A DNA stretch of 64,000 nucleotides from a virus: the IMG/VR virus record IMGVR_UViG_3300019458_000021, positions 173,380 to 237,379 of that record; one strand, given 5' to 3'. A model generated the notes under the pieces. The model was not told the origin of the DNA, ran no database searches, and saw only the letters and a list, made by a program, of their open reading frames with translations. This document shows positions 1-43,971 of the stretch, piece after piece (within the stretch, counting starts at the first letter, position 1; each line of letters opens with the position of its first letter). Position numbers and translations under genes: made by a program.

Positions 1-423
1 AATCAAAGAATTGTTTGTTTTATGACTTCCAACCACACTCTTGTTACACGAAGAAACGGAAAAATAGCACTCCACTCGAATTCAAAGCATGCAATGCACT
101 TGGTTCGCTTGCTTCGCATGGGCGTGGAAGCTCTAACTGAAGGCAAGATCATCGTTCGTCGTCCAGACGCAAAAGAACTGTTGGAGATCAGAGCTGGTTC
201 GTGGACTTATGAGCAGGTGGTGGAGTACGCTGAAAAGATGGACGTCATGGTCCGTGAACAGCTATATCCAACAACCAGCTTGCCTAAGAAGCCGAACTAC
301 AAACTTGCGGCACAGTTGACGATTGAGGTTCAAGACATGATGTGGAACCGAACCATTCGCACAATGAGTGAAGAGGAGAAGTTTCTGATCGTTGGCAACC
401 AACAATACAGGATCACAGACTAA
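1..423 (+). CDS. Phage nucleotidyltransferase-like protein, C-terminal part (5'-truncated by window)
   Basis: The frame is open to the first base of the window (codons before the ATG at 22 read N-Q-R-I-V-C-F), so this is probably the C-terminal portion of a longer gene. The stretch KHAMHLVRLLRMG followed by ELLEIRAGSWTYEQV resembles the helical C-terminal region of phage-encoded polymerase-beta-superfamily nucleotidyltransferases (RlaP-like). The catalytic GS/DxD part would lie upstream and cannot be checked. It ends directly at the start codon of the next gene (TAA-ATG), which suggests co-transcription. Family assignment is by pattern only. Confidence 0.55.
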   Translation, partial: NQRIVCFMTSNHTLVTRRNGKIALHSNSKHAMHLVRLLRMGVEALTEGKIIVRRPDAKELLEIRAGSWTYEQVVEYAEKMDVMVREQLYPTTSLPKKPNYKLAAQLTIEVQDMMWNRTIRTMSEEEKFLIVGNQQYRITD

Positions 424-996
424 ATGATCGACGAAGAACTAGAAAAAGAAATCATACAGTTACTGCAGTTGTTTGAACAGCGAGAACAATTATTCACCGT
501 TGGCACAGGAAAAATCATCGAGAAACTCGGTCCAACTGTTCTCGCTGCACTTTACGAGTTCTTCAACGTCTCGTATGACGCAATTTCGTGGCTGTTGATC
601 GACGTCAATGACGGCACATTGATGATAGGTGCTGTTGTCTCGTATAAAAACACCGATTTGGTGCCGGAGGCAATCAATCGCTTGTCACCTATGACAGGTG
701 AAGTACCAGAAGAAGGAAACCTAACCGAGGTTCAACGTCTGATGCGAATTGGTATTCCCTTGGCAATGGTGTTCCAGCCAAAAGAAGAGATTGTTCGTTT
801 TCTCAACAGCCGCGTTGCTCAACAAGCAACGCCAGAGGCTCCAACTCCAACTGTGTTCGTCAACAAAGCAACGGGCGAAGTGCTTGAAGCGAAACAAAAA
901 CCCGAAGAAAGCGATTTCGACAACAGTAAGCTTTCACGTGAGCAACTCGCCTCGTTACTCCAATCTCAACATCTGATCAAGGGAACAAAACACTAA
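424..996 (+). CDS. Hypothetical protein (190 aa)
   Basis: Not recognised. It has an acidic, helical N-terminus (MIDEELEKEIIQLLQLFEQ), a hydrophobic middle around residues 50-75 (DAISWLLIDVNDGTLMIGAVV) and a charged, Pro-rich C-terminal tail. It abuts the upstream gene without a gap and overlaps the next gene's start by one base, so it belongs to the same operon that leads into uvsY/uvsW. No signal peptide or catalytic motif is evident. Confidence 0.7.
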   Translation: MIDEELEKEIIQLLQLFEQREQLFTVGTGKIIEKLGPTVLAALYEFFNVSYDAISWLLIDVNDGTLMIGAVVSYKNTDLVPEAINRLSPMTGEVPEEGNLTEVQRLMRIGIPLAMVFQPKEEIVRFLNSRVAQQATPEAPTPTVFVNKATGEVLEAKQKPEESDFDNSKLSREQLASLLQSQHLIKGTKH

Positions 997-1475
997 TGGC
1001 AGATCCAACAAACATATTCCAAAAACTCGAACCAAAAGACAGTATAGCGTTTCGCCTGCTTCTTGAACGACACGTGCAACTGGAAGAAGAGTACGACCTT
1101 GCTCGGCAGAGCTTAACATTCAAAGGTAAGACGCTAGCGCAGGCAAACAATGATCAAGCCGAATGGCCGATCTACGTTGACGAACGACTTTCCGAACTTA
1201 AAACAATCTGTAAACGACTAGAAACCGTTGTGGATATGGTTCGGGGAAACATTGTTCGGCAGCTCAAGGGTGGCAGTGGGCTTGATTTAGGTCGCGACCT
1301 CACTCGCTACGTTGACCGTGACGACAAGTTCCTTGATGCTCAGGAACGATTCCTGATGTTTGACGAACTCCGTGAAAAGTATGCAGCACTTTCCGAAGCA
1401 TGGACCACAAGGGGGTATGCTTTGAAGAACAGAGTGGACATGTTGGTACATCAGGTAAAAGACAACCTGTTATAA
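996..1475 (+). CDS. uvsY: UvsY-like recombination mediator (tentative)
   Basis: This is a 159-residue, mostly helical protein immediately upstream of uvsW, the T4 neighbourhood of UvsY. T4 UvsY (137 aa) ends in a pattern of long helix plus 'K-S-R-x-F-A-I-K-H' before the C-terminus. Here residues 135-155 read ALSEAWTTRGYALKNRVDML, which is similar in spacing and character. UvsY loads the UvsX recombinase on ssDNA coated with gp32. The call depends on synteny and a weak C-terminal resemblance. It could instead be an unrelated helical protein. Confidence 0.5.
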   Translation: MADPTNIFQKLEPKDSIAFRLLLERHVQLEEEYDLARQSLTFKGKTLAQANNDQAEWPIYVDERLSELKTICKRLETVVDMVRGNIVRQLKGGSGLDLGRDLTRYVDRDDKFLDAQERFLMFDELREKYAALSEAWTTRGYALKNRVDMLVHQVKDNLL

Positions 1476-1477
1476 AC

Positions 1478-2995
1478 ATGCAAATACGAATAAGGATACT
1501 GAATGAAGTATACGTTGTTGTTCTGGATCTTCTACCAGAGCACGTCGATTACTTCTACGAAAAATACGCTGTTCATGCGCCGAACTACTTCTTCAATCCG
1601 CGCTACAAACTAGGCCAGTGGGACGGTAAGATTCGCTTCTTTCACAAGACGGGCAAGACATACTTGTACCTGTTGGAAGACCTCTTGCCGCGTATCGTCA
1701 ATCTTGGCTACAAGGTCGTCTTAGAAGACCTGCGTGACAACGTTCTGGTTGCAGCCGACGAAATCGATGCTGACTTGTTTAACGCCGTAAAGCATCCTGA
1801 CACAGGTGAAGCTACGGTACTTCGCGAACATCAGGTTGCAGCTGTAAATTCACTTATCCGAGAAGGTTTTGGTACAGTGATAGCATCAACCGGATCTGGC
1901 AAAACTCTAATGTGTGCTGCGTTGTGTTATCAGTATGATAAGTTTGGATTGAAGTCGTTAACAATCGTTCCAAACAAGGACTTGATTCGTCAAACACGCC
2001 AAACATACATTCATTACGGACTCGACACAGGCGAATATAGCGGCGAACGAAAGACACTTGGACATCAACACGTTGTTTCAACGTGGCAAGCACTTAAGAA
2101 TGCACCGGAAGTGATCACGATGTTCAACATTGTCATCGTCGATGAGGCGCATGGTTTGAAAGGCAATGTCCTGTCAACAATCCTGACCGACCATGCTGCA
2201 AAGGTCCCGTATCGCTTTGGTTTCACTGGTACGCTGCCAAAGGACAAATCTGATGCTTGGGCTGTTCATGTGGCCGTTGGTCCAGTCCGCTACCAAGTTC
2301 CAGCTTTTGAACTGATCGAGAAGGGACTTCTTGCCAAGATCAATATTGATGTGGTCCAACTGACTGAAGATCTGACTGAAGAGTACGACCAATTCATTGC
2401 CGACACACCAAACATTCCCAATAATGAGCAGCCGACGTATGCAGAGTTCAAAGAAGGCTACTTTCCAGACTTTACAGCTGAGAAGTCATACTTGCAACAC
2501 AAGGAAGACCGGATCACATATCTTGCGCAGTATATTGAAGCAAAGCGGGATGCAAAAAGGGGAAACGTTCTCTGTCTCATAGACAACATTGCATTTGGTC
2601 GAAAACTCGCTGCAGAAATCAATGGAGCTATTTTCGTCAATGGTAAGGATGTTAGATCAACGAAGGAACGAAAACAGATCTATGACTTGTTTGCTTCTCA
2701 CGACGATCTTGTCGTGATTGCTACGGTCCACATTGCAGGAACTGGCATTGACATTCACCGCATCTTCAACCTAATGTTAATCGATATTGGAAAATCATTC
2801 ATTCGAGTGATCCAAGCAATTGGTCGAGGACTGCGCATGGCAGAAGACAAGGATAGCGTTCACATCTCTGATTTGACGAGCGATTTAAAGTACAGTCGCA
2901 AACATATGCGAGAGCGAATAAAGTTCTACAAAGAAGCTCAATACCCTCATAAGCTACACAAAATCAACTACTCGAAGCTTGTCCTCGAGGACTAA
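1478..2995 (+). CDS. uvsW: UvsW-type SF2 DNA/RNA helicase
   Basis: This 505-residue protein has an N-terminal domain typical of T4 UvsW (FNPRYKLGQWDGKIR, residues 42-56) followed by two RecA-like domains. Visible motifs are Walker A ASTGSGKT, DEAH (VIVDEAHG), motif III-like FTGTL, and motif VI QAIGRGLR near residue 450. UvsW unwinds branched DNA and R-loops and helps switch replication from origin to recombination mode. A longer frame extends to 1400, but it overlaps uvsY. The ATG at 1478, three bases after the uvsY stop, begins the conserved N-terminal strand (MQIRIRIL) and is preferred. Confidence 0.93.
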   Translation: MQIRIRILNEVYVVVLDLLPEHVDYFYEKYAVHAPNYFFNPRYKLGQWDGKIRFFHKTGKTYLYLLEDLLPRIVNLGYKVVLEDLRDNVLVAADEIDADLFNAVKHPDTGEATVLREHQVAAVNSLIREGFGTVIASTGSGKTLMCAALCYQYDKFGLKSLTIVPNKDLIRQTRQTYIHYGLDTGEYSGERKTLGHQHVVSTWQALKNAPEVITMFNIVIVDEAHGLKGNVLSTILTDHAAKVPYRFGFTGTLPKDKSDAWAVHVAVGPVRYQVPAFELIEKGLLAKINIDVVQLTEDLTEEYDQFIADTPNIPNNEQPTYAEFKEGYFPDFTAEKSYLQHKEDRITYLAQYIEAKRDAKRGNVLCLIDNIAFGRKLAAEINGAIFVNGKDVRSTKERKQIYDLFASHDDLVVIATVHIAGTGIDIHRIFNLMLIDIGKSFIRVIQAIGRGLRMAEDKDSVHISDLTSDLKYSRKHMRERIKFYKEAQYPHKLHKINYSKLVLED

Positions 2996-3971: not shown

Positions 3972-4494
3972 TACAACGCTGAAAGACCGCACCCTTTGGT
4001 TTGATGGTGATTCGTCGTTCAACTCAGATACGTTGTACGACGCCGTTCAGAAGTATGACGTAAAGTTTGTCGATTGGATCTCACCTCTCGTTGCCCAATA
4101 CAATCGTCAAGTTCAGACCGATCAAGAACTCACTGTCAAAACACGATGCAAGCCTTTAACGTTTGACTGGACGATTCCTGAGAAGTACGCTAAACTTGAC
4201 ATTGTGCAGCATATCGCCGACAAGCATTGGGCTGTCTTGCGGACGTGCCCGGAACAGGAGTGGGAAGATCGCGAACTTCGCCTCGTTTCAGAGCTACGGA
4301 ACTATCAGAAGCGGAATTTGTACGGCGTTTTACGCGTAATCATTTTCGTCATAAATACCTTAACCGACAATGATATAGTGTGGGGTGTCGGCCGTGGCAG
4401 CAGCGTGTCGTCTTATGTCTTGTATGTGATAGGTGTTCACGACGTGGATAGCTTTGCATATGATCTCGACGTCGACGACTTCCTGCACGATTAG
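3895..4494 (+). CDS. DnaE-like (C-family polymerase) N-terminal palm fragment
   Basis: The last ~55 residues carry the DnaE/PolC palm signature: WGVGRGSSVSSYVLY, then the I-x-x-x-D-V-D-x-x-x-Y-D element, ending VDDFLHD. In bacterial DnaE this stretch reads G-P-G-R-G-S-[AG]-[AG]-S-L-V-A-Y ... F-E-R-F-L-N and is followed at once by M-P-D-x-D-[IV]-D-F with two catalytic Asp. Here the protein stops exactly before that motif, which opens the protein at 35082. No PHP, exonuclease or finger domain is present. The start is uncertain: the ATG at 3895 overlaps the previous gene by 77 bases and has no clear SD, and no other ATG/GTG/TTG lies before the conserved part. Confidence 0.8.
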   Translation: MTHPNQPRPQTSTPDRVSLTQAHLHSTTLKDRTLWFDGDSSFNSDTLYDAVQKYDVKFVDWISPLVAQYNRQVQTDQELTVKTRCKPLTFDWTIPEKYAKLDIVQHIADKHWAVLRTCPEQEWEDRELRLVSELRNYQKRNLYGVLRVIIFVINTLTDNDIVWGVGRGSSVSSYVLYVIGVHDVDSFAYDLDVDDFLHD

Positions 4495-6636: not shown

Positions 6637-7566
6637 ATGCAAGATAAGCATAAGCTTTGGGTCGAAAAATACAGACCCTCTGCAATAGAAGACTACATTT
6701 TTCACGACGGACATCAACGGGCCTCATTCGAGGTGATGATTGCAAATAAAACGATCCCACACCTACTTTTGTCTGGTGTTCAAGGATCTGGTAAGACAAC
6801 AATCGCTCGAATCCTTATCAGTGCAATGGAACTTGACAACAGTGATGTGCTGAAGATCAACGCTTCACGAGAAAACACCGTTGAAGTGGTTCGTGAGAAG
6901 ATTCAAAGCTTCGTTTCCACGTTCGCAATGAGTGACTTCAAGGTTGTGTACCTCGAAGAAGCGGACTACATCACGTTGAACGGTCAAGCCGTAATGCGCA
7001 ATATCATGGAACAGTATTCGAATCACGTCCGGTTCCTACTAACTTGTAACTACGCCCATCGAATCATGCCCGCTATCGTGTCGCGATGCCAACACTTCCA
7101 TTTCAAAGCTCCGCCAAAAGCAGAAGTAGCAAGCTACTGCTATGAAATTCTTGGCCGGGAACGAATCAACTTCTCCGATGCGACGTTGATCAAATACATA
7201 ACGCACGGCTATCCGGACATTCGCAAGATCGTCAATTCGTTACAACAGAATTCGAGTACTGGTGAGCTTCTTGATCCAAAGCTAGAAGGCGCTGCCGGTG
7301 ATTGGAAGTTCCAACTGATCGACATGATTGAACAGAATAAGTGGAATGAAGCTAGGAAACTGGTGTGTGCGAGTGTTGATGGAGAAGAGTGGGTCGAATT
7401 GTACAGATTCCTCTACGAGAATCTACGTCGAGGCCTCAAGTTTCAAGACACTGCAAAGTGGGAGGAAGGAATTCTCACGATTGCAAAACATCTATACCAG
7501 CATGGTGTTGTTGCTGATCCCGAGATCAATGCAGCTGCCATGTTTATCAGCTTAGGACAACTATAA
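6637..7566 (+). CDS. 44: Sliding-clamp loader ATPase subunit (gp44-like)
   Basis: This is a 309-residue AAA+ clamp loader. It opens WVEKYRP, the RFC/gp44 signature. Walker A is GVQGSGKTT (47-55), the Walker B region is VVYLEEAD (near 106-113), and the SRC arginine-finger motif IVSRCQHF follows near 146. It loads the gp45 clamp on primer-template with the small subunit. As in T4, the partner gp62-like gene lies just downstream. It overlaps the following gene by one base. Confidence 0.93.
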   Translation: MQDKHKLWVEKYRPSAIEDYIFHDGHQRASFEVMIANKTIPHLLLSGVQGSGKTTIARILISAMELDNSDVLKINASRENTVEVVREKIQSFVSTFAMSDFKVVYLEEADYITLNGQAVMRNIMEQYSNHVRFLLTCNYAHRIMPAIVSRCQHFHFKAPPKAEVASYCYEILGRERINFSDATLIKYITHGYPDIRKIVNSLQQNSSTGELLDPKLEGAAGDWKFQLIDMIEQNKWNEARKLVCASVDGEEWVELYRFLYENLRRGLKFQDTAKWEEGILTIAKHLYQHGVVADPEINAAAMFISLGQL

Positions 7567-12529: not shown

Positions 12530-12531
12530 CT

Positions 12532-15052: not shown

Positions 15053-15061
15053 GGGAAAACA

Positions 15062-16132: not shown

Positions 16133-16134
16133 CG

Positions 16135-18311: not shown

Positions 18312-18338
18312 ATGAGCGTCGAGCCTTGGAGGACTGAT

Positions 18339-18836: not shown

Positions 18837-18881
18837 TAAAAGTATACGAGTATATTGTACGAGAACGAGCGAGAATGACTG

Positions 18882-19979: not shown

Positions 19980-20409
19980 TCTATATATTGCACAAGTACT
20001 CCAGCACAGTATTCGTCGTCGTGCATCAATTGGCACAGATTTTCGTTTTGTGTTGCGTGTGTCGAATGTAGTAGAATCACCGCTTCTGTGGAACTATGAG
20101 GGAGATTGGTCAATCTTCCTCGACGCGAAAATGCTTTGTTTGTGCGACATAAAGGAACTTACGGAACATTTCGACCCGCAATACGCCGTTCAGTTTGTTA
20201 AGTTCGCTGAACAACCATTGGCTGTAGTTGTATTCAATCACAACAAATTTGGCCGAACACCCGATCTCCATGACAAAGAAATTGGAGACCTGCCTTCAGA
20301 GTTTAACAGCGAATTCCCAACAGCAAAAATTCTTCGGTACGACAACGACCCATACAACTCTCAACTTTGGAAAGATGAACTCGATGACATGCTCCGAACT
20401 TACAGTTGA
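19942..20409 (+). CDS. Short glycosyltransferase-like protein (GT-A type, tentative)
   Basis: A 155-residue protein. The central run SIFLDAKMLCLCDIKEL resembles the 'FLDADMLCLGDI-EL' segment that carries the DxD metal site of GT-A sugar transferases, but the Asp pair reads DAK. Farther on, VVVFNHNKF and IGDLPSEFN match typical acceptor-side elements (L-P-x-x-[WF]-N). It is shorter than normal enzymes and may be inactive or a minimal fold. The ATG at 19942 is preferred over 19915 because GGAAAC precedes it. Confidence 0.45.
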   Translation: MGKTLQLTIGYSDLYIAQVLQHSIRRRASIGTDFRFVLRVSNVVESPLLWNYEGDWSIFLDAKMLCLCDIKELTEHFDPQYAVQFVKFAEQPLAVVVFNHNKFGRTPDLHDKEIGDLPSEFNSEFPTAKILRYDNDPYNSQLWKDELDDMLRTYS

Positions 20410-21244
20410 GAACTTCATCTCCCAGCAATGGATCCATAAAAATCGCTACGTACTTAACGCAAGAACAGTGACACCTGAATGTGTTGAGTCCTTGAACGCA
20501 CAGGCATTCAAACGATTCCAGTTATCAAATCATCAACGCAAATACTCGAAGTCGCCAATTCGAATCGATATCTGTGAGTGGCTAGAACGTCGGGCGTCAT
20601 TCTCTCTACATGAATACGACTACACAATTCCACCAGGGTATGTAACGCCAATTGAGTTTTTTAGCGAGGCGCAGCCATGGCGAATGCTGTTGCTTTCTTT
20701 CGATCCATATGCGTCAATCCTGCAGCGAAAGCTGTTCACCGATGCACGATTCGTTGAACGTGCATACGAAGAAAAGGACGATATGTATTCACCGAAATCG
20801 TTCCTGTTGGAACAGATTGAACTTGGATGGCTTGGCTACAGCGAATTTGAAGACTGTATTTTCATTCACCACATACAAGTGCGAGGTGCACTCAAAGAAG
20901 GAATGCGATACAATGACCTTGTTTGGTTCTATAGATACTTGGTTCGTGCATTTACGCAGATGTTGCCCGAAGGGAAGTTGAAGCATGTGTACGCACCAGA
21001 TGCAGCAACGTTGTCGCTGTACAGCGAACGTCTGGTCGGGAATGCGTCAATAGTACTTCCGTATTCGCGGCATGTGCTACGAAAGAGCGACTTTCATACG
21101 GTTGGCTGGGACGCGTTTGCAACACAATCACCAATCGCGGCGGCTAAATGCAAGATGCGTGATGTGTTACTGCCAGACGAGATAACACTTTGGAGATACG
21201 ATTATAATGATCCACACACTTTGGCACGACAGAATTCTGATTGA
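20384..21244 (+). CDS. Hypothetical protein of the radical SAM island (286 aa)
   Basis: Not recognised. It is an alpha/beta protein; the central SEFEDCIFIHHIQVRGALKEG followed by a helix has the look of an acyltransferase (GNAT-like) beta-bulge region, but the acetyl-CoA loop is not evident. It overlaps the upstream gene by 26 bases and the downstream 2OG oxygenase by 38, so it is part of the same translationally linked set. An ATG at 20375 is an alternative start. Confidence 0.6.
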   Translation: MTCSELTVENFISQQWIHKNRYVLNARTVTPECVESLNAQAFKRFQLSNHQRKYSKSPIRIDICEWLERRASFSLHEYDYTIPPGYVTPIEFFSEAQPWRMLLLSFDPYASILQRKLFTDARFVERAYEEKDDMYSPKSFLLEQIELGWLGYSEFEDCIFIHHIQVRGALKEGMRYNDLVWFYRYLVRAFTQMLPEGKLKHVYAPDAATLSLYSERLVGNASIVLPYSRHVLRKSDFHTVGWDAFATQSPIAAAKCKMRDVLLPDEITLWRYDYNDPHTLARQNSD

Positions 21245-21809
21245 AGACGATTTGCTTGACCCGCAAGGCTGGAGTAATTTTCGAGACTGGGTCGGAGTGG
21301 AATTTGGTCGTCGACAGACAAAACCAATTATGTCAATCGACCATCTCAACTTGCCACCTGAACTCGGTTACTACGCAGCCATGCTTGACGGTGCCGTGAC
21401 AAACTATTGCGAAGCTTGTGGCATAGACTATGCAATGGATATTGTAAACCTACAGGCAACTTGGGTTGAGAATTACAACGAAACAAGTCACCATGAATTC
21501 GTACATGAACCACATCACGACCTTTCGGAAGGTGGCTATCTTGTTGCTGTGTATTATGTATGTACAGATGTGAATTCACTAACAAGATTTGTTGGGGGAG
21601 ACCTGGCGATATACAAGGCACTGACATATAGTGAATACCCCGAGGGAATGGTTCACGTTCGTGCAATACCGAACCGGTTGGTTGTTTTTCCTGCTATGCT
21701 TTACCATCGCATCAAACCATACTTCGGTCGTTCCCCACGAATTGCATTGTCGGCTGTGTTGTCTAAATCAGCCGACACAGTTCAAAACAAGAGAGTTTGC
21801 ACACTATGA
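21207..21809 (+). CDS. 2-oxoglutarate/Fe(II)-dependent oxygenase (2OG-1)
   Basis: A 200-residue double-stranded beta-helix protein. The iron facial triad is visible as HxD (EPHHDLSEGG) and a distal His in AMLYHRIKPYFG, followed about 10 residues on by Arg (SPRIALS) that would bind 2-oxoglutarate. GGDLAIY and IPNRLVVFP are typical strands of prolyl-hydroxylase-like phage enzymes. Substrates of such enzymes are often protein side chains. It lies next to a second oxygenase and between radical SAM genes, which suggests action on the same product. Confidence 0.8.
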   Translation: MIHTLWHDRILIEDDLLDPQGWSNFRDWVGVEFGRRQTKPIMSIDHLNLPPELGYYAAMLDGAVTNYCEACGIDYAMDIVNLQATWVENYNETSHHEFVHEPHHDLSEGGYLVAVYYVCTDVNSLTRFVGGDLAIYKALTYSEYPEGMVHVRAIPNRLVVFPAMLYHRIKPYFGRSPRIALSAVLSKSADTVQNKRVCTL

Positions 21810-22441
21810 ACTTCTACAAATTGTGGGCGTATCCAATTTACACATGCGAAAACGTTCTCCTCGACACCGAACGTCAGCAGGTGGCCGACTATGTGCTACA
21901 TCGATTCAAAGATCTGGACGACGACAAAATAGTCAACGTTCACGTTGCTGTTGATGGCGAGTTGGACAAAATTCCAAGCGATCTAAAGCTGTTGTATTAC
22001 GCATTGTATGTGAAGTTTTCTCAATATGTCTTCGAATGCGGAAATCCTCTTGAAGAGTACTTTCTTCACAGGATTGCTATGAATAAGACTCGCGCATTCG
22101 TTCCAGGACGAGACGAAGGTGTGATTTATGAATTGCACGCGGACGATAGCGTGAATGACATTACATGCGTCTACTACGCTCAAATCGATACAGTACACGC
22201 TAATGGTGGTAGTGCCGGCGGCGACCTGCGAATCTACAACCGAGCGGTGCTCGACACAACCGATGATACACGCGAAGCGTATGTCACTTGCAAACCAGTT
22301 GACAATAAAGCAGTAATGTTCCCGGGCAGTTTGATTCACGAGGTTCGTCCATATTTTGGTGAGCGTCCTCGAGTTAGTCTAAACTACAAGTTTCGTCGTT
22401 ACCGCAGGAACATCTCTTTGAAACCAAAGCTGGTAATATGA
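21806..22441 (+). CDS. 2-oxoglutarate/Fe(II)-dependent oxygenase (2OG-2)
   Basis: A 211-residue relative of 2OG-1. HxD is in YELHADDSVND, the distal His in GSLIHEVRPYFG, and the 2OG-binding Arg in ERPRVSLNY. GGDLRIYN and NKAVMFPG match the strands seen in 2OG-1. The ATG at 21806 overlaps the 2OG-1 stop by 4 bases; an upstream in-frame TTG at 21797 is possible. It overlaps rSAM-5 by 4 bases. Confidence 0.8.
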   Translation: MNFYKLWAYPIYTCENVLLDTERQQVADYVLHRFKDLDDDKIVNVHVAVDGELDKIPSDLKLLYYALYVKFSQYVFECGNPLEEYFLHRIAMNKTRAFVPGRDEGVIYELHADDSVNDITCVYYAQIDTVHANGGSAGGDLRIYNRAVLDTTDDTREAYVTCKPVDNKAVMFPGSLIHEVRPYFGERPRVSLNYKFRRYRRNISLKPKLVI

Positions 22442-23382
22442 AACCAGTCACTCTATCAATCAATCCACTGTATCTGTGCAACTTTCGGTGCAAGTTTTGT
22501 TATCTAACACCAGAACAACTTGCAGACAAGAAGAAAATCGATCATGTCCGTCTTGACCAAATGCTCTCTGAGGTCACAATGGTTACGGCAATCCAACACG
22601 TTGACTTGTACGGTGGAGAAATTGCACTGCTTTCCGATGAGTACTTTGATGATATGAAGCGGATCATCCGACAGTACTACTACAAGCCGATCAACGTTGT
22701 CACTAACCTGTCGAGAGTTCCGAAATTTTTCATGCCACCTGACATTCAATTGTCCGTGAGTTTTGATTTCGATTGTCGCGAACGGTACGAAGAAGTGTAC
22801 AGAAACATGGCAACTGTTCAGAAGCCGCTGCATGTTCTGGTTTTAGCTAGCAGGTGCTTAATCGACAAAGACGTCGACTACATGATTATGATGCTGAACA
22901 CATTACAAAATGTTCGGACAGTTGAGATCAAACCGTATAGCACGAATCAAGCAAACCAACATACCGTGTCGCACGCAGACTTCGAACGATTCGTTAAACG
23001 TTGGTTGACGAGTCGGATTCCAAAACGATTTGCGTTTATCAACGAGCAGAAGATTATCGAAGCGCTTCGCGGATCGTACAACGCATTTAGTGATGACCAT
23101 GTCTATATCACCCCTAATGGCAAGTTTGCGGTGCTTGATTTCGACGAGAGCGATCACGAGAAGTTCACAGAGCTCGACCACTTTGTGGACTATGTCCGGT
23201 GGACAGAACATGAGAAACAACTAATCGGAAGCAATTCATACTGCCAAACCTGTCCATATTTCGGTCACTGTTTGACAGAACACTATCGTTGGGTGAAAGA
23301 TCTCGAAAACTCGTGCAATGGTTACAGGTTCCTTTTGGATTGGTGCAATGAAAGAATGGAAAATCCGGCAGCAAATCTATGA
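22438..23382 (+). CDS. Radical SAM protein with C-terminal Cys cluster (rSAM-5)
   Basis: C14-C18-C21 (YLCNFRCKFC) lie very near the N-terminus, and the GGE motif is intact (DLYGGEIAL). A shortened C-terminal cluster reads YCQTCPYFGHC ... SC, enough for one auxiliary Fe-S site (twitch-like). The 314-residue protein begins inside the last codons of 2OG-2 (ATGA overlap), an arrangement that implies the oxygenases and this enzyme are made together. Confidence 0.88.
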   Translation: MKPVTLSINPLYLCNFRCKFCYLTPEQLADKKKIDHVRLDQMLSEVTMVTAIQHVDLYGGEIALLSDEYFDDMKRIIRQYYYKPINVVTNLSRVPKFFMPPDIQLSVSFDFDCRERYEEVYRNMATVQKPLHVLVLASRCLIDKDVDYMIMMLNTLQNVRTVEIKPYSTNQANQHTVSHADFERFVKRWLTSRIPKRFAFINEQKIIEALRGSYNAFSDDHVYITPNGKFAVLDFDESDHEKFTELDHFVDYVRWTEHEKQLIGSNSYCQTCPYFGHCLTEHYRWVKDLENSCNGYRFLLDWCNERMENPAANL

Positions 23383-23801: not shown

Positions 23802-23828
23802 AGCGTTTATGGAAAACCATGAAACGCT
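23802..23828 (+). promoter_or_regulatory. Hairpin sequestering the HNH endonuclease start codon
   Basis: Arms 23802-23812 and 23817-23828 pair over 11 bp with one bulged G (23821) and an AAAA loop. The start codon 23819-23821 lies in the right arm and the weak GGA SD at the apex. Full-length read-through RNA would hide the start. A late transcript from about 23807 loses the lower half of the stem. This parallels the known control of T4 I-TevI. Confidence 0.7.
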
Positions 23829-24397
23829 GCACTTGCTCACTACACGAGGGAACAAATCCTCTCCCCATTTCATTCTTCACCAAAGACGCATCGACCTCTG
23901 ATAGCCTATCCCGACTGTGTCGACTTTGTTCTCAACGACGCTCCGCGGAAATACGAAATAGACGCAGAAAGAAACAACAAACGCTCACGAGAGAGCGATA
24001 CAAAAACGATCCAATGTTTCGAGCGAAAGCTTTGGCTAGCTCTCGGTCCTACCAGCGCAGAAGACTTGCTGAAGACCCTATGTATGCACACAAATTGGAG
24101 ATGTGGAGGAACGCACGATCGCGCGCTGTACGAAAAGGTCTAACATTCACAATAACAGTCGACGACATAAGCATCCCTCAGCGTTGCCCCATTCTTGATC
24201 TTCCGTTGACGCGAAATCAGGGCAGGCGAGGTCCAACGGAGGAATCTCCGACACTCGATAGAATTGATCCAAAGCACGGCTACGTTCCTGGAAATGTCAT
24301 CGTGATCAGCATGCGGGCGAACACCATCAAAAGTTTTGGTACGCCAGAAGAACACTTCAAGATTTACCGGTTTCTATCACAGTTGACTCAGAGATAA
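23819..24397 (+). CDS. HNH homing-type endonuclease with N-terminal Cys finger
   Basis: A 192-residue protein. The N-terminus has the CxC ... CRLC zinc-type start common in phage HNH enzymes (KRCTCSLHEG ... LSRLCRLCSQ), then a strongly basic linker and a C-terminal HNH-like fold: QRCPILDLPL ... TLDRIDPKHGYVPGNVIVIS ... RANTIKS. It is related to the HNH gene at 18339 (same C-terminal motif order). It is inserted between the radical SAM island and the next fibre gene. Translation is likely controlled by the hairpin over its start. Confidence 0.85.
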   Translation: MKRCTCSLHEGTNPLPISFFTKDASTSDSLSRLCRLCSQRRSAEIRNRRRKKQQTLTRERYKNDPMFRAKALASSRSYQRRRLAEDPMYAHKLEMWRNARSRAVRKGLTFTITVDDISIPQRCPILDLPLTRNQGRRGPTEESPTLDRIDPKHGYVPGNVIVISMRANTIKSFGTPEEHFKIYRFLSQLTQR

Positions 24398-31061: not shown

Positions 31062-33287
31062 ATGACAATTGCTCGGTCATTCTTCAGGCAGGCTACAGGA
31101 AATTTACAGGGAGCAATGTTGTTTGGCTGGGGAAATGCTACCACAGCAGAAACAGGCACTGGTCTGGGATCAATCACAGGCATATTTGGTCAGTGGGCAA
31201 TGGCACCAATTTTTCCAATTGATAATCTTAGTTGGAACACATTGAGTGTCGGTGCTGCACACACCCTTGGAATTAAATCAGACGGCACGTTGTGGGCGTG
31301 GGGTGAAAATACAAACGGAGCACTTGGTGATGGAACTATAACATCAAGATCGTCCCCTGTGCAAATTGGAACGTCAAGTTGGTTATCTGTTAGTGCTGGT
31401 AATGCTAATAGTTTCGGTATTCGTCTTGACGGTGCATTATTCGCCTGGGGGACAAACACAAGTGGTCATCTAGGTACCGGCAACACAACAAACTTTTCAT
31501 CGCCAGTGCAAATTGGAACATCAAGTTGGTCAATGGTTAGTTCTGGTGAACTTTGGACTGCTGCACTTCGCAGTGATGGAGTTTTGTTTACCTGGGGCAA
31601 CGCTGGAGACGGTAAACTCGGTGACGGAACAATCACTAGTAAATCATCGCCCGTTCAAATCGGTGCATCAGTCTGGACGTCAGTTAGTGCTGGTTCACAC
31701 CACGGTGCATCTATTCGCTCAGATGGAGCTTTATTCACATGGGGTCGAGGCGTAAACGGACAACTAGGTGACGGAACGTCGGTTAGTAAGTCATCGCCAG
31801 TGCAAATCGGAACATCAAGTTGGAGCATAGTAGACGCTGGTCAAGATCACACAATGGGCATTAAAATAGATGCAACGCTTTGGGCTTGGGGTGCAGGCAC
31901 AAACGGAAAACTTGGTGATGGAACAACCGTTTCTAAATCTTCCCCTGTTCAAATTGGTACGTCTAGTTGGAATGCTGTTGCGGCTGGTCGTGAATTCACT
32001 TTCGCTATACGGTTAGATGGTATGCTGTTTTCTTGGGGTGAAAACGATAGTGGTTTGCCTGGACAACTTGCGAATTTGACATTCACAAACACTTCCTCCC
32101 CTGTTCAAGTTGCTTCAACAGCTAGTTGGACAATGGTGTCGACTGCTAGAACGACAAATGGAAACTCAGGCATGACTGGTGGAAAACGAACTAACGGTCA
32201 AATTTACATTTTTGGTAACGGTCCTGGTGGTGAGGAATTCGGATTCACCTATTGGGTCCCTGCTACTATTAGTCAAACACTGCCGTATCCATCCGCCTAT
32301 GCTGAACATCCAACATCTAGTGCACAAGCACGAAGCTGGAGTGTGATCAGCTCCGGTGACAACTGGAGTGTTGGCATTCGTTCTGATGGTAGTCTTTGGT
32401 CGTGGGGGACAAACACTAACGGGCAACTTGGAAATGGAACAACCGCTGCTACGTGGCCGCCTACACAAATCGGTGCGTCTAGTTGGACTGCTATAGCGGC
32501 TGGACCGAGTCATGTAGTTGCCATTCGTTCGGATGGTGGATTGTTTACCTGGGGTGCTAACGGTCAGGGACAACTTGGTGATGGATCAACAACAGCAAGA
32601 TCCTCACCAGCTCAAGTTGGTACTGAGAGTTGGGTTGTTGTTACTGCTGGAGGACATGGAACATTCGGTCATTTCTCTGGTGGCATAAGGATTGGTGGAG
32701 CCTTGTTTATGTGGGGCAGAAACAGCGAAGGTGCACTTGGTGATGGCACAACAACAAACAAATCGTCACCTGTGCAAATTGGAACATCGAGTTGGAATGC
32801 TGTTGCTACTGGTGATTTCCACACGGTTGCAATTCGATCAGGCGGCTCACTATTTGCATGGGGATTTAACGGCAGTGGACAAGTTGGTGATGGATCAACA
32901 ACAAACAGATCATCTCCTGTGCAAATTGGAACATCGAGTTGGAATGCTGTTGCAGCAGGCGAATCATTTACTGCTGCAATCCGAAACGGAGGTAATATTT
33001 TCACATGGGGCAACGGTGGAAATGGTCGTCTTGGTGATGGAACTATCGTTTCCAAGTCATCACCTGTGCAGATCGGAACCTCGGTGTGGACACAGATTAC
33101 GACCGGTTTCGCATATGTGCTTGCTATACGAAGCGACAACGCTCTCTTTGCATGGGGCAACAACGCAAGCGGACAACTTGGTGATGGAACGGTCACAAGC
33201 AGATCGTCCCCTGTACAGATTGGTTCTTCCTACCAATGGTCAAGAATTTCCGGTGGTATTGATAGTTCGCTTGCCGTTGCAACTTAA
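31062..33287 (+). CDS. Double RCC1-type beta-propeller protein (741 aa)
   Basis: Twelve clear ~50-residue RCC1 blades are visible, each with the consensus AIRSDG-x-LF-x-WG ... GQLGDGT ... SSPVQIGTSSW. Six lie before and six after a degenerate ~70-residue stretch (about 350-425), with half-blades at each end (LFGWGN near residue 24; SSLAVAT at the C-terminus). This arrangement suggests two seven-bladed propellers closed by split blades. RCC1 folds bind proteins or glycans. Between two fibre genes, a receptor-binding or fibre-tip role is likely. It follows the Gly-rich gene by 9 bases. Confidence 0.85.
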   Translation: MTIARSFFRQATGNLQGAMLFGWGNATTAETGTGLGSITGIFGQWAMAPIFPIDNLSWNTLSVGAAHTLGIKSDGTLWAWGENTNGALGDGTITSRSSPVQIGTSSWLSVSAGNANSFGIRLDGALFAWGTNTSGHLGTGNTTNFSSPVQIGTSSWSMVSSGELWTAALRSDGVLFTWGNAGDGKLGDGTITSKSSPVQIGASVWTSVSAGSHHGASIRSDGALFTWGRGVNGQLGDGTSVSKSSPVQIGTSSWSIVDAGQDHTMGIKIDATLWAWGAGTNGKLGDGTTVSKSSPVQIGTSSWNAVAAGREFTFAIRLDGMLFSWGENDSGLPGQLANLTFTNTSSPVQVASTASWTMVSTARTTNGNSGMTGGKRTNGQIYIFGNGPGGEEFGFTYWVPATISQTLPYPSAYAEHPTSSAQARSWSVISSGDNWSVGIRSDGSLWSWGTNTNGQLGNGTTAATWPPTQIGASSWTAIAAGPSHVVAIRSDGGLFTWGANGQGQLGDGSTTARSSPAQVGTESWVVVTAGGHGTFGHFSGGIRIGGALFMWGRNSEGALGDGTTTNKSSPVQIGTSSWNAVATGDFHTVAIRSGGSLFAWGFNGSGQVGDGSTTNRSSPVQIGTSSWNAVAAGESFTAAIRNGGNIFTWGNGGNGRLGDGTIVSKSSPVQIGTSVWTQITTGFAYVLAIRSDNALFAWGNNASGQLGDGTVTSRSSPVQIGSSYQWSRISGGIDSSLAVAT

Positions 33288-35081: not shown

Positions 35082-35672
35082 ATGGCTGACATTGATATTG
35101 ACTTTCGTACCGACTTTGATCCAAAGCGCGTCTTCAAACAGATCATTCCTGCTTCGATCATCAAGAACGATGATCTCGAGAAGCACAACTGTGGACACTA
35201 TTTTCAAACGATTCCTGTTGATCCTGTCACAGGGTTAGCAGCTATTCCTTATGAAGAAGCAGAGGTCTTGGGATACTTTAAGATTGACTTCTTACATCTG
35301 GCTGTGTTAGACAACTTCACAAGCAAAGACGAAATTCGAAAGCTGATTCGTCAATCACCTGATTGGACCCTTTTATTACACGAGGAACACGTTTCAAAAC
35401 TCTTCCAAGTCCATAAACGAGCCGACTTGTTGAAACGAATTCGGCCAAATTCAGTTCAGGAATTGGCCGATTGCATTGCATTGATTAGACCATCAAAGAA
35501 ATATCTCATAAATAGATATGTAACAGAGATTAACAATAGAGAAACAATACAAAGAGAATTATACGAAAAACCAACAGAGGGTGGTAGTAAATGGTTTAAA
35601 AAAGCTCATGCGATCAGTTACGCGTTGACAATAGTGCTTCAGTTACACCTTATCCAACAAGGAAAGTTGTAG
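35082..35672 (+). CDS. DnaE-like catalytic palm/finger fragment (second half of split gene)
   Basis: This 196-residue protein opens MADIDIDF, the DnaE catalytic motif (M-P-D-[FI]-D-[VI]-D-F) with two metal-binding Asp. In DnaE order it then shows KHNCGHYF (for KHAGG), LGYFKIDFLHL (for LVKFDFLGL, third catalytic Asp), KRIRPNSVQELADCIALIRPS (for the finger element ending ALxRPGP) and KKAHAISYALTIVLQL (for the N-K-S-H-[AS]-x-x-Y-x-x-x-[SV]-Y-Q region). It lacks the tau-, beta-clamp- and OB-domains. It complements the fragment at 3895-4494, 30 kb away, which ends exactly where this begins. Confidence 0.85.
   Translation: MADIDIDFRTDFDPKRVFKQIIPASIIKNDDLEKHNCGHYFQTIPVDPVTGLAAIPYEEAEVLGYFKIDFLHLAVLDNFTSKDEIRKLIRQSPDWTLLLHEEHVSKLFQVHKRADLLKRIRPNSVQELADCIALIRPSKKYLINRYVTEINNRETIQRELYEKPTEGGSKWFKKAHAISYALTIVLQLHLIQQGKL
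35507..35514 (+). promoter_or_regulatory. Possible late promoter CATAAATA inside DnaE-like gene
   Basis: CATAAATA at 35507-35514, 256 bases before the next gene. It could supply late transcripts of the 35770 gene or be a chance match in an A/T-rich coding stretch. Confidence 0.3.
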
Positions 35673-36766: not shown

Positions 36767-36976
36767 ATGTGCGTTGTCAGTGTGATTACCGAATACGGTC
36801 GCGATAGAATGAGTGCTCCCTGGACGCCAGAACAGTTACAAGCATTCAAAGTTCTGATCGAGCAGGCGCAGAAATTTGACAAGTTAACCGATCAACCGAA
36901 CTGCGAGGATCCTGCAAAAGCTGTGTGGATTGCAGGTGTTGAAGAATCAGTTGGAGCCATCAAGAATGACGTTTGA
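36767..36976 (+). CDS. Small hypothetical protein upstream of sod (69 aa)
   Basis: Start chosen at 36767 because AAAGGAGGGG (36749-36758) precedes it at normal spacing. It is a small acidic protein, MCVVSVITEYGRD ... TPEQLQAFKVLIEQAQKFDKL, ending GAIKNDV. It overlaps the superoxide dismutase start by 11 bases. Its function is unknown. Confidence 0.6.
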   Translation: MCVVSVITEYGRDRMSAPWTPEQLQAFKVLIEQAQKFDKLTDQPNCEDPAKAVWIAGVEESVGAIKNDV

Positions 36977-37568
36977 ATGCCCGCCACTCAAGTTCGCTCA
37001 CGACGCGCTTGAGCCATATCTCTCGAAAGAGAATGTTGCACTCCATTACGAGAAGCACACAAAAGGGTACTTCAAAAAGACGAATGAGTTGATCGAAGGC
37101 ACTGACTTTGCAAAGGCCAAGTCGCTCGAAGACCTTCTAACAAAAGACAACTTGATGAAGGCGGACAGCAAACTATTCAATCAAGCTGCACAAGCGTGGA
37201 ACCATACATTCTGGTGGGAAAATCTTGCAGCAAATGGCGGTGACAAAAATCCATCACATGAATTGATGGAAGAGATTGATAATCACTTCACCGACTTCAT
37301 AACATTCAAGAAGAAGTTTGTTGAAGCCGGAATGGGCCAGTTCGGTAGTGGTTGGGTGTGGCTTGTTTGGAAGAACCGATCGCTGTCAATCGCAACAACA
37401 CCAAATGCAGGTACGCCACTTACAACACATGCAAAACCATTGCTTGTTGTTGATGTGTGGGAGCATGCTTATTATCCGACATACTTTAATGATCGCGAGA
37501 AATATTTGAAGAAGATTTGGACCATTGTAGACTGGGGCACGATCAATGAGCGATTCGGAAAACTTTGA
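36966..37568 (+). CDS. sodB: Fe-type superoxide dismutase
   Basis: This 200-residue protein has full-length Fe/Mn-SOD architecture. Metal ligands are visible: H27 (ALHYEKH), H80 (AWNHTFWW), D163 and H167 (VDVWEHAYY). Q76 in QAAQAWNH and the NAGTPL loop are Fe-type rather than Mn-type markers. The enzyme converts superoxide to H2O2 and O2 in the cytoplasm. The start at 36966 overlaps the small gene before it. SODs are uncommon phage cargo. Protection of Fe-S enzymes or of host metabolism during infection is a reasonable inference. No signal peptide is present. Confidence 0.93.
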   Translation: MTFECPPLKFAHDALEPYLSKENVALHYEKHTKGYFKKTNELIEGTDFAKAKSLEDLLTKDNLMKADSKLFNQAAQAWNHTFWWENLAANGGDKNPSHELMEEIDNHFTDFITFKKKFVEAGMGQFGSGWVWLVWKNRSLSIATTPNAGTPLTTHAKPLLVVDVWEHAYYPTYFNDREKYLKKIWTIVDWGTINERFGKL

Positions 37569-41209: not shown

Positions 41210-42256
41210 TTAACGTAAGCCCCCAGGAATTCCTTTTGAAACAACAGCCGTTGCTGACCAAGGATGAAGCGACTCAAGGTGTTCAGTAACAACACTGAAG
41301 TCTAGAATCTTACCCTCATCGTACATCATGTCAAGGCCTTGATACAACAGACGTGATGCATCCTCTGTGAACAGAAGGTTTGATCCGTTAAGCTCAGCGA
41401 ACGCTTGTTCATCACGCCGCTTACAGATTACAACAACTTCGGTTGGGACTTGACGACGAGCCACCTCTACAATATCTTCAATCCACACAACATGTTTGTC
41501 AGGATTAAACTGAACGGTGATTTTTCCGAGCGATCGTTGTGAGTGTCCGTTTGCAGCCTTACCGCGTTTGCGTGTTGCATGCTGCGCAAGTTCAAACGAA
41601 CATGGACAGGTTGAGGAATACAGATAGTCAACAGTCAGAAGGAATTTGTATGTGTCCCGTCCCGCTCTTAAATAAGGAGTATCCGTTACTTCTCTGTGCA
41701 ATTGACCTTCCAATGTGCAGTCATAGAAAATGTATCCAAGCATCTTGTCATGGCTCAGTTCTACTCCTTCGACTGTCTTGAATGTACGACCTAACGTTTT
41801 CTCTTCGTCCGAGGCCTCGCGTCTAGTTCGGAGCGCTGGCTGCGTCCAAGGATATTTGAAACGCAACTTACAATACACGTGCTTCGATCCTTGCTTTTCT
41901 TGAAGTCTTTTAAGAATCCCCTTCAAGCCGTCGAGTGAGAGATGATTTGCAATCTCTTCATGCATCAGGATTGGGAATCGAGACAGGTTTAATCCTTTGG
42001 CTTCTGGATTGTCCAGTGAACCATACAATGAAGCCTTTACATGTAGATTTTCGATGGAACCATCTCTGCGTAAAAACTTTATTGGAAGATCAACACCAGT
42101 CACACCAACCTTGTCCAGTCGTACCTTCGACCCTGGAATTACAGGATTGACTTGTGGGTCTGGAAGATCGCCGTCGTCTGGATAAAATTTGTCATCGTAT
42201 GTAAAGTCCAAGTGCGGCATGTGTGCACTGTAATCGTTATTTCGGAATTTGGTCAT
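41210..42256 (-). CDS. folE2: GTP cyclohydrolase I type B (FolE2-like)
   Basis: This 348-residue protein carries the FolE2/COG1469 signature: STCPCSFELAQHA (active-site Cys), NGHSQRSLGKITVQF, IEDIVEVARRQVPTEVV, then FTEDASRLLYQ and SVVTEHLESLHPWSATAVVSKG. It converts GTP to dihydroneopterin triphosphate, the entry to folate and to 7-deazaguanine (preQ0) synthesis. In phages it usually accompanies queuosine-type genes used to modify DNA. A QueD-like gene lies at 48402. The start overlaps the stop of the intein-kinase gene, so they are co-transcribed. Confidence 0.85.
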   Translation of the reverse strand: MTKFRNNDYSAHMPHLDFTYDDKFYPDDGDLPDPQVNPVIPGSKVRLDKVGVTGVDLPIKFLRRDGSIENLHVKASLYGSLDNPEAKGLNLSRFPILMHEEIANHLSLDGLKGILKRLQEKQGSKHVYCKLRFKYPWTQPALRTRREASDEEKTLGRTFKTVEGVELSHDKMLGYIFYDCTLEGQLHREVTDTPYLRAGRDTYKFLLTVDYLYSSTCPCSFELAQHATRKRGKAANGHSQRSLGKITVQFNPDKHVVWIEDIVEVARRQVPTEVVVICKRRDEQAFAELNGSNLLFTEDASRLLYQGLDMMYDEGKILDFSVVTEHLESLHPWSATAVVSKGIPGGLR

Positions 42257-43971
42257 TATAACTCTCGTTGTTCATACGTTGCCAGTATTTGTGCATCTAT
42301 CATTTCTGCACGCAAATCTGCATCAAGTACATCAATGATATTCAGTCTGTTCGGCTGTGTCATCTGTGCGGTGAAATCATACATTGTGAGATCAACCATC
42401 CGTCCGTAGTGTTGGTTTACTGCAGCACGGTTGGGATCCATTACAATGGGGAATTTTCCACCTTTGACGTAGTATACAGCATCATAGCTTTGTTGAGCAC
42501 GAAGACATTTCATGTAGTACTCGTTTAAGTACTGATCGAAACGGTTTTCTCGACCAAGCCAAATCACAGCATAAGCAAAGAGGTCAGCATATGTTCTTTC
42601 AGTGAACACAACACCTGTTCGTCTTTGATATTTGCGATCGTTACTTGATGTGTGTAGCACTCTTTCTGCGTCATGCTCATCTTTGTATTTTCGAGCAAGA
42701 ATTTCGTTTTGGAATTTTACGACGAGATCGGGATCTTTAATGATGTCTTCAAGAGACATTCCCCACTCACTTTGAATTGACCGTGATGTTTTTCGTTCGA
42801 TTATGCGATAGCCTTTGGCCTCAAGTCTTTTTAGAATTGTTGTGTTGTGCGTAACGATGTAATCGTCCGTGATGTATAAATGTTCAGGATCGTCGATTGC
42901 TATACACCACACCTCTTCTTTACCTTTGTAAGTAATGTCTGAAATCCTGCGTGTGAGCAGTAAACTTCCGTTTTTGTGTCCTTCAAAGTGAGAGGAACGA
43001 CAACGATCTTTTTTTCTGGGGAGTGAAAATACACTAGAAGGATTTGGCAACTTTAGAGCAATTTCATATGCAATGAGACCACTGTGAAGCTTGTCTTTGT
43101 ACTTGTACACAGGGTGTCTTTCACTAATCGTTGCTACTCCGCCGAGCGACCAAACAATGTCCTGTACGTCTCTTGCGAGTGCATAACTAGTTGTGGTAAA
43201 CGTTGTAGAGGAGCCATTACTACTCACAGTTCCGTCTGTGTCCATCAACCCTTGAAGTAATTTCAGCCTATCGTTTGGTGGTCCATTTTTATATGCATTA
43301 GGAACAAACTTTTCTGGCGACTTTTTCATCAGATCGTAGTTCTCAAATGCACGTATATACTTGTTATTATGTTTTCCCTCATGACCAAGTCGATACGAGA
43401 TCGATGTACCTTGTTGAACAAAGTTATAACCAGAATCGAGTAACTTACTGCACTCATGTAAAATATGTGTATCTGTTGTTGTAAGAAGTACAGATTCCGA
43501 TGTTAAAGACCCGTCTCCAAGAAGACACCCCAACAAATAGGGAGGTATGTCATATTGATGATTATTGTCGTTCAAATATGGTGTAACCAGTGGTATTGAC
43601 AGATTTGTCCCCCACTGCTTTCTTGTTTTTTGTCTCTGCATGTAAGCACTCATGCTGAGTGTGGTCATTACTTCTTGTTTCAATCGATAAAATGATTTGT
43701 TGTTTTTTTTCGTGTATTGACCATACGAACACTTCCACAAATGATCTCCACACGCCTCTGTTTTCCCGCCATCGTGTGTGGTAATAATGTACACATCTTT
43801 CACACCTTGAGGGAAAATTCCAATGATAGGTGCAGAATGACCATTTGGTGTAATCACTCGATCTTTACAGGTAAGCTCCCCTATACACTTCCATCCTGTT
43901 TCACATAGTACTTTCGAGTGTAGAGGTTGAGCCTTGCCTGACCCCTGTGAGCCAGAAATTGCCACCAGCAT
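42256..43971 (-). CDS. P-loop nucleotide kinase-like protein interrupted by an intein
   Basis: The 571-residue precursor has extein residues 1-13 (MLVAISGSQGSGK, most of the Walker A loop) and 377-571 (starting TTILKRLEAKGYRI). These join to a 208-residue AAA_28/kinase-type P-loop protein with an LID-like Arg-rich middle (RKYQRRTGVVFTERTYADLF). The likely role is a phage nucleoside/nucleotide kinase comparable to T4 gp1, but this is not certain. Without splicing the P-loop is split and the enzyme would be dead, so activity depends on intein excision. GGAGGGAG precedes the ATG. Confidence 0.85.
   Translation of the reverse strand: MLVAISGSQGSGKAQPLHSKVLCETGWKCIGELTCKDRVITPNGHSAPIIGIFPQGVKDVYIITTHDGGKTEACGDHLWKCSYGQYTKKNNKSFYRLKQEVMTTLSMSAYMQRQKTRKQWGTNLSIPLVTPYLNDNNHQYDIPPYLLGCLLGDGSLTSESVLLTTTDTHILHECSKLLDSGYNFVQQGTSISYRLGHEGKHNNKYIRAFENYDLMKKSPEKFVPNAYKNGPPNDRLKLLQGLMDTDGTVSSNGSSTTFTTTSYALARDVQDIVWSLGGVATISERHPVYKYKDKLHSGLIAYEIALKLPNPSSVFSLPRKKDRCRSSHFEGHKNGSLLLTRRISDITYKGKEEVWCIAIDDPEHLYITDDYIVTHNTTILKRLEAKGYRIIERKTSRSIQSEWGMSLEDIIKDPDLVVKFQNEILARKYKDEHDAERVLHTSSNDRKYQRRTGVVFTERTYADLFAYAVIWLGRENRFDQYLNEYYMKCLRAQQSYDAVYYVKGGKFPIVMDPNRAAVNQHYGRMVDLTMYDFTAQMTQPNRLNIIDVLDADLRAEMIDAQILATYEQREL
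42844..43932 (-). mobile_element. Intein with LAGLIDADG homing endonuclease (363 aa), inserted in P-loop
   Basis: Residues 14-376 of the kinase precursor. Block A starts with Ala (AQPLHSKVLCETGWK) rather than Cys/Ser, as in known Ala1 inteins. Block B has CGDHLWK. The dodecapeptide motifs LLGCLLGDGS (about 146-155) and LLQGLMDTDGT (about 238-248) identify the endonuclease. Blocks F/G are EHLYITDDYIVTHN, with Thr as the +1 extein residue. All splicing residues appear present, so excision is expected. Confidence 0.92.

What the first reader, a model, noticed from the sequence alone, without database searches (positions are those of the whole stretch)
35082..35672. C-terminal half of the split DnaE keeps all three catalytic aspartates
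D-I-D-I-D-F at residues 3-8 and F-K-I-D-F near residue 66 correspond to the three metal-binding Asp of DnaE, followed by recognisable finger elements in the right order, all in 196 residues. Retention of the catalytic residues argues for selection on activity. It lies 30 kb from its partner, behind its own promoter.
Basis: partly seen in the sequence, partly recalled or inferred. Interest (0 to 1): 0.85.

Follow-up and report, generated by a model that had tools for sequence, protein, structure and literature searches.

The report
C-terminal half of split phage polymerase
This gene encodes one half of a pared-down bacterial-type DNA polymerase that many giant phages carry as two separate genes next to a complete polymerase of another kind; every copy examined keeps the catalytic residues, so it is probably a working two-piece enzyme, but the split enzyme was already described in 2021.

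Summary
Window 35082-35672 (+) encodes 196 aa homologous to the second palm segment and part of the fingers of DnaE (PHROG 11778, 1e-65; AlphaFold model pLDDT 95.9, superposes over residues 1-196 on E. coli Pol III alpha 399-782, Z 10.4). D3, D5 and D69 correspond to catalytic D401, D403 and D555. In 119 homologues (near-duplicates included) these never vary; D7 (D405), K67 (K553) and H176 (H760, proposed steric gate) are equally invariant. A scan with finger-region patterns only, and an untargeted tblastn, remove the obvious bias. Close pairs show dN/dS 0.01-0.16. The partner (3895-4494, invariant GxGRGS) lies 30.6 kb upstream; both halves occur in 22 of 23 records, same strand, never fused. 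A T4-like family B polymerase co-occurs in 22 of 23. The system is not new: Iyer et al. 2021 (PMC7824862) described this split minimal Pol III alpha in group 2.2 jumbo phages. Added here: invariance of triad and steric gate, the fixed split site, missing thumb and LRRAMG stretch, conserved replication neighbourhoods. Activity is untested.

The parts
35082..35672 (+). C-half of split minimal DnaE (196 aa): second palm segment plus part of the fingers
35088..35102 (+). D3-I-D5-I-D7 = E. coli D401, D403 (metal ligands) and D405
   Evidence: sequence; E. coli numbering; VIA-align 1..196 on 399..782; 119/119 invariant
35184..35195 (+). H35-x-x-G38 = E. coli H511-x-x-G514 (KHAGG motif), both invariant
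35280..35288 (+). K67-I-D69 = E. coli K553-F-D555, third metal ligand
   Evidence: hhalign; 119/119 invariant
35607..35609 (+). H176 = E. coli H760, the proposed steric gate against ribonucleotides
   Evidence: phmmer register 169-184 on 753-768; 119/119 invariant; role from PMC8485763
3895..4494 (+). N-half of the split DnaE (199 aa): first palm segment; residues 1-87 are phage-specific and unmatched
   Evidence: PF07733 1.4e-10, PHROG 11127 1.2e-36, VIA-align 88-199 on E. coli 273-394, Z 12.6 to 13.9
4384..4401 (+). G164-V-G-R-G-S169, nucleotide-binding GS motif of the N-half (E. coli GRGS at 361-364)
   Evidence: G164, G166-S169 invariant in 101/101
1400..2995 (+). UvsW-like helicase, upstream of the N-half (context; same order in XacN1)
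   Evidence: PHROG 16 8.6e-70
6637..7566 (+). clamp loader gp44-like, downstream of the N-half (context; same order in RaK2, Atu_ph07, XacN1)
   Evidence: PHROG 168 3e-72

Best explanation
The protein is the catalytic half of a two-chain, minimal C-family (DnaE-type) DNA polymerase. The N-half (3895-4494) supplies the first palm segment with the nucleotide-binding GxGRGS loop; the C-half supplies the strand with D3/D5, the strand with K67/D69 and a reduced fingers region with the steric-gate His. The chain break falls in the loop E. coli 395-398, so the two chains should assemble into one Pol-beta-like palm, with the N-terminus of the C-half in the active site. It works beside a complete T4-like family B polymerase encoded elsewhere in the genome, most likely as an accessory polymerase for short synthesis (repair, gap filling or lesion bypass). 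Shown: homology, fold, residue invariance, purifying selection, co-occurrence, neighbourhoods. Inferred: heterodimer formation, polymerase activity, accessory role.
For: Fold: C-half residues 1-196 on 2hnh 399..782 (Z 10.4, rmsd 3.4, 190 aligned); the 14 best entries are all Pol III alpha, the next has Z 3.3. N-half 88-199 on E. coli 273-394 (Z 12.6 to 13.9). The two ranges abut and do not overlap. D3, D5, D7, K67, D69, H176: 119/119; N-half G164, G166, R167, G168, S169: 101/101. dN/dS 0.014-0.16 in close pairs. N-half in 22 of 23 records with a C-half, same strand, separate ORF, and in 8 of 9 further ones. Distances between halves correlate across 22 genomes, r 0.90, 0 of 2000 permutations. 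PolB in 22 of 23, intact 903-aa ORF in this genome. N-half between UvsW helicase and clamp loader; C-half two or three genes from primase or helicase in most isolates. D405 is Asp in DnaE and Asn in PolC (PMC3919608), so the type is DnaE-like.
Against: No biochemistry exists. The thumb, the LRRAMG finger stretch, HhH and PHP domains are missing, so templated processive synthesis is doubtful. No two-chain model could be run. The r of 0.90 is not corrected for shared phage ancestry. In the window itself the C-half lies among tail and structural genes, not beside primase.
Confidence: 0.75

Rival explanations
1. The two halves form a nucleotidyltransferase that is not a templated DNA polymerase, for example adding nucleotides to DNA or RNA ends; the thumb and the dNTP-contacting finger stretch were lost because no duplex is held.
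For: Thumb and LRRAMG stretch absent by length and alignment; no HhH or PHP domain in 17 genomes; a full PolB is present.
Against: The steric-gate His (H760 in E. coli, PMC8485763) is invariant, which points to deoxynucleotide use; fingers elements IRP and LFQ are kept; neighbourhoods are replication genes.
Confidence: 0.12
2. A regulatory or structural descendant that kept the fold but not catalysis, for example a decoy that binds host Pol III partners.
For: Small size; missing domains; C-half sits beside genes annotated as virion structural in several isolates.
Against: All metal ligands and the steric gate invariant in 119 sequences down to roughly a third identity; GS motif invariant in the separate N-half. 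A non-catalytic role would not hold all of these.
Confidence: 0.08
3. The gene is a chance-split or decaying DnaE in this one phage (frameshift, assembly error, or a split intein or intron that rejoins the product).
For: A split gene with halves far apart invites it; homing-type genes occur in the window (18312-18836, 23819-24397).
Against: The same break in every one of about 100 N-halves and 119 C-halves; N-halves end 29-37 aa after GRGS with no room for an intein; C-halves have their own start codon; no group I or II intron in the window; dN/dS well below 1.
Confidence: 0.02
4. The pair is the main replicative polymerase of the phage.
For: Sits with clamp loader and helicase genes; conserved across the whole group.
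Against: Intact T4-like PolB in 22 of 23 records; no thumb, HhH or clamp-binding part.
Confidence: 0.03

Closest known systems
Split minimal DNA polymerase III alpha of group 2.2 jumbo phages (Iyer et al. 2021, PMC7824862)
   Same: Two separate proteins from distant genes; N-unit binds NTP, C-unit holds Mg-binding residues and fingers; accompanied by family B polymerase; no other Pol III domains. Atu_ph07 is in both sets.
   Different: Nothing essential. This contig is a further member; residue-level invariance, the steric gate, split site and neighbourhoods are documented here, and members also occur in 141-kb Alishewanella phages below the jumbo size.
PHROG 11778 (C-half) and PHROG 11127 (N-half), both 'DNA polymerase'
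   Same: Full-length matches, 1e-65 and 1.2e-36.
   Different: Only a family label; no function tested.
E. coli DnaE (Pol III alpha)
   Same: Catalytic D401/D403/D555, D405, K553, H511, H760 equivalents; fold of palm 273-394 and 399-782.
   Different: Two chains, about 395 aa in all against 1160; no PHP, thumb, LRRAMG finger stretch, HhH, OB or clamp-binding part.
'Truncated' Pol III alpha CBB_328 of phage CBB (PMC5259590)
   Same: Is the N-half of the same pair, noted as 172 aa against 1120 aa.
   Different: The authors saw a truncated protein and did not report the second half.

Membership tests
Split minimal Pol III alpha of group 2.2 jumbo phages | two standalone proteins encoded by distant genes | tested here: met
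   3895-4494 and 35082-35672, 30.6 kb apart; 22 of 23 records likewise
Split minimal Pol III alpha of group 2.2 jumbo phages | N-unit with nucleotide-binding subdomain | tested here: met
   GxGRGS invariant in 101/101; fold match E. coli 273-394
Split minimal Pol III alpha of group 2.2 jumbo phages | C-unit with Mg-binding and template-binding subdomain | tested here: met
   D3, D5, D69 119/119; fold match E. coli 399-782
Split minimal Pol III alpha of group 2.2 jumbo phages | family B polymerase in the same genome | tested here: met
   PF00136 2.4e-40 at G000:C1:69230-70432, 903-aa ORF
Split minimal Pol III alpha of group 2.2 jumbo phages | no other Pol III alpha domains in the genome | tested here: met
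   PHP and HHH_6 absent in 17 of 17 records, fingers only in the C-half in this genome; this record may be incomplete
C-family DNA polymerase (DnaE) | metal-binding Asp D401, D403, D555 | tested here: met
   declared absolutely conserved in the family by PMC3919608
C-family DNA polymerase (DnaE) | Asp at 405 (DnaE) rather than Asn (PolC) | tested here: met
   D7 119/119
C-family DNA polymerase (DnaE) | thumb between the two catalytic segments | tested here: not met
   63 residues between D5 and D69 against 151 in E. coli; no space for it
C-family DNA polymerase (DnaE) | PHP domain and (HhH)2 | tested here: not met
C-family DNA polymerase (DnaE) | templated DNA synthesis | not testable with these tools
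   needs purified halves

The most novel reading that the evidence does not exclude
A two-chain, thumb-less DnaE core in which the start of one chain forms the active site acts as a specialised nucleotidyltransferase or short-patch polymerase unlike any characterised C-family enzyme, switched on only when both separately encoded halves are made.
Probability: 0.15. Interest if true: 0.7.

Novelty: new member of a known kind. Interest (0 to 1): 0.35.

Why it matters
If the reconstituted pair is active it would be the smallest known C-family polymerase (about 395 aa in two chains) and would show which parts of DnaE are dispensable; it would also ask why giant phages with a complete family B replisome keep a second, bacterial-type polymerase core. 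Iyer et al. read it as a relic of early replicons. The invariant residues listed here give direct mutants for testing.

Tried and rejected
Own promoter: 9-of-12 site at chance level. Split intein or trans-spliced intron: no extra residues at the break, no group I/II intron in the window. Fused form: none among the loci read; one apparent 356-aa N-half frame (G013) is only an out-of-frame reading upstream of a normal ATG. PA5oct seemed to lack the first Asp because the tblastn match starts at residue 33, but its ORF reads VTDVDID. Global profile alignment to E. coli misplaces both ends because of the two deletions; motif registers and structural ranges were used instead. dN/dS from distant pairs is saturated and was not used. 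A proofreading exonuclease partner (RNase_T) was sought: present in 14 of 23 records but not detected in this one, so not part of the core. Bacterial genome scan: 3 strong hits in metagenome bins that may be phage contigs, the rest ordinary DnaE-like.

Full report
Observation. The ORF at 35082-35672 (+) encodes 196 aa beginning MADIDIDF, with F66-K67-I68-D69-F70 further on. It matches PHROG 11778 'DNA polymerase' over its full length (1e-65) and Pfam DNA_pol3_finger at 3.9e-5, above the cut-off. Untargeted tblastn finds 63 phage records, nearly all jumbo phages (XacN1 52%, RAS14 48%, Atu_ph07, GAP32, CBB, 121Q, RaK2, PA5oct, SCTP-2) plus two 141-kb Alishewanella phages. The contig is a 237,379-bp virus record; the window is its last 64 kb.

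Residues. In E. coli DnaE the motifs PDFDVDF and KFDF start at 400 and 553, so D3 = D401, D5 = D403, D7 = D405, K67 = K553, D69 = D555; phmmer registers 169-184 on 753-768, so H176 = H760. D401, D403 and D555 are the metal ligands and are absolutely conserved in the C family; D405 is typical of DnaE, Asn in PolC (PMC3919608). H760 is the proposed steric gate (PMC8485763). Among 119 C-halves, near-duplicates included, all six positions are invariant, as are H35, G38, L71, P93, W95, P122, R136 and P137. The first scan used patterns that include the Asp motifs, but the second used finger patterns only, and all 77 of its new loci keep DxDxD (one, L117, is cut at 81 aa by a frame break and keeps both motifs). 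At least 595 candidate stretches exist in IMG/VR; only the best 80 were read. Close pairs show dN/dS 0.014-0.16.

Partner. The N-half is 3895-4494 (PF07733 1.4e-10, PHROG 11127 1.2e-36). It occurs in 22 of 23 records that hold a C-half, always as a separate ORF and on the same strand, 11 to 223 kb away in the isolates, and in 8 of 9 further contigs, where the closest pairs are about 5 kb apart. N-halves end 29-37 residues after GRGS, just before the position where the C-half begins; in many homologues the C-half starts MDIDID, so that the first catalytic Asp is residue 2. G164, G166, R167, G168 and S169 are invariant in 101 sequences. Distances between N-halves and between C-halves correlate across 22 genomes (r 0.90, none of 2000 permutations), which shows joint inheritance but is not corrected for phage phylogeny.

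Structure. The C-half model (pLDDT 95.9, pTM 0.87) aligns over residues 1-196 with E. coli Pol III alpha 399..782 (2hnh Z 10.4, rmsd 3.4, 190 aligned); the 14 best entries are all Pol III alpha and the next has Z 3.3. The N-half model (pLDDT 91.0, pTM 0.67) aligns from 88 to 199 with E. coli 273..394 (Z 12.6-13.9). The two ranges abut, so together they cover one palm and part of the fingers. Only 63 residues separate D5 from D69 against 151 in E. coli, so there is no thumb, and the LRRAMG stretch at 708-713 has no counterpart. PHP and HhH domains are absent from 17 of 17 records searched. Metal-site geometry in a two-chain model could not be tested.

Surroundings. In the window the N-half lies between a UvsW-like helicase (1400-2995) and a gp44-like clamp loader (6637-7566), with a GroES-like gene between. 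The order N-half, small ORF, GroES-like or head-morphogenesis gene, clamp loader recurs in RaK2 and Atu_ph07, and helicase, N-half, clamp loader in XacN1. In most isolates the C-half lies two or three genes from a primase or helicase gene; in the window it follows structural genes. A family B polymerase is found in 22 of 23 records and as an intact 903-aa ORF with a GDTDS motif in this genome. The claimed promoter is not above chance.

Explanation. The two proteins most likely assemble into a minimal DnaE-type polymerase that is an accessory to the phage's own PolB. Homology, fold, invariance and selection are shown here; assembly, activity and role are inferred. Missing thumb and finger parts make processive templated synthesis unlikely, which is why short synthesis or an untemplated activity must be kept open.

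Known or new. Iyer et al. 2021 described this phage-specific minimal Pol III alpha, split into two proteins encoded by distant genes, in group 2.2 jumbo phages beside PolB, and suggested one-strand synthesis or repair (PMC7824862). The CBB paper had noted the N-half as a truncated Pol III alpha (PMC5259590); the RaK2 paper names only PolB (PMC3622015). A full-text search for later work found none, within the limits of that library. The finding is therefore a new member of a known kind. New detail: invariance of triad and steric gate, fixed break point, lost elements, neighbourhoods, and members below the jumbo size.

Noticed in passing
window 36930-37568 (+): Fe/Mn superoxide dismutase (Pfam Sod_Fe_C 4.1e-35, Sod_Fe_N 4.7e-22) with no PHROG match; unusual for a phage.
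   Followed up: no
window 11354-23382 (+): Cluster of radical-SAM-like proteins (17073-18311 and 22438-23382 match PF04055; 11354, 16135 and 18882 carry CxxxCxxC motifs by eye) with two 2OG-Fe(II) oxygenase-like genes (21207, 21797); looks like a modification cassette.
   Followed up: no
window 41210-42256 (-): GTP cyclohydrolase FolE2 (PF02649 1.2e-50), possibly for deazaguanine DNA modification.
   Followed up: no
window 42256-43971 (-): 571-aa ORF matching terminase large subunit, DNA primase and helicase-loader PHROGs plus a LAGLIDADG domain; possibly an intein or homing element shared by these profiles.
   Followed up: no
window 31062-33287 (+): RCC1-repeat protein (PF25390 1.9e-119) among tail fibre genes.
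   Followed up: no
window 3985-4155 (N-half residues 31-87): Phage-specific N-terminal part of the N-half (LxDRxLWxDGxSSF), confidently modelled but without a structural match; could be a partner-binding piece.
   Followed up: partly
G000:C1, PHROG 13169 match of the N-half: PHROG 13169 (463 aa, 'DNA polymerase') matches the N-half at profile positions 341-411, near its own end; it may be the N-terminal piece of another DnaE broken at a similar place.
   Followed up: no
L031 (XacN1) and 13 other records: DnaQ-like RNase_T exonuclease gene in 14 of 23 records, 2.3 kb from the C-half in XacN1; not detected in this genome.
   Followed up: partly
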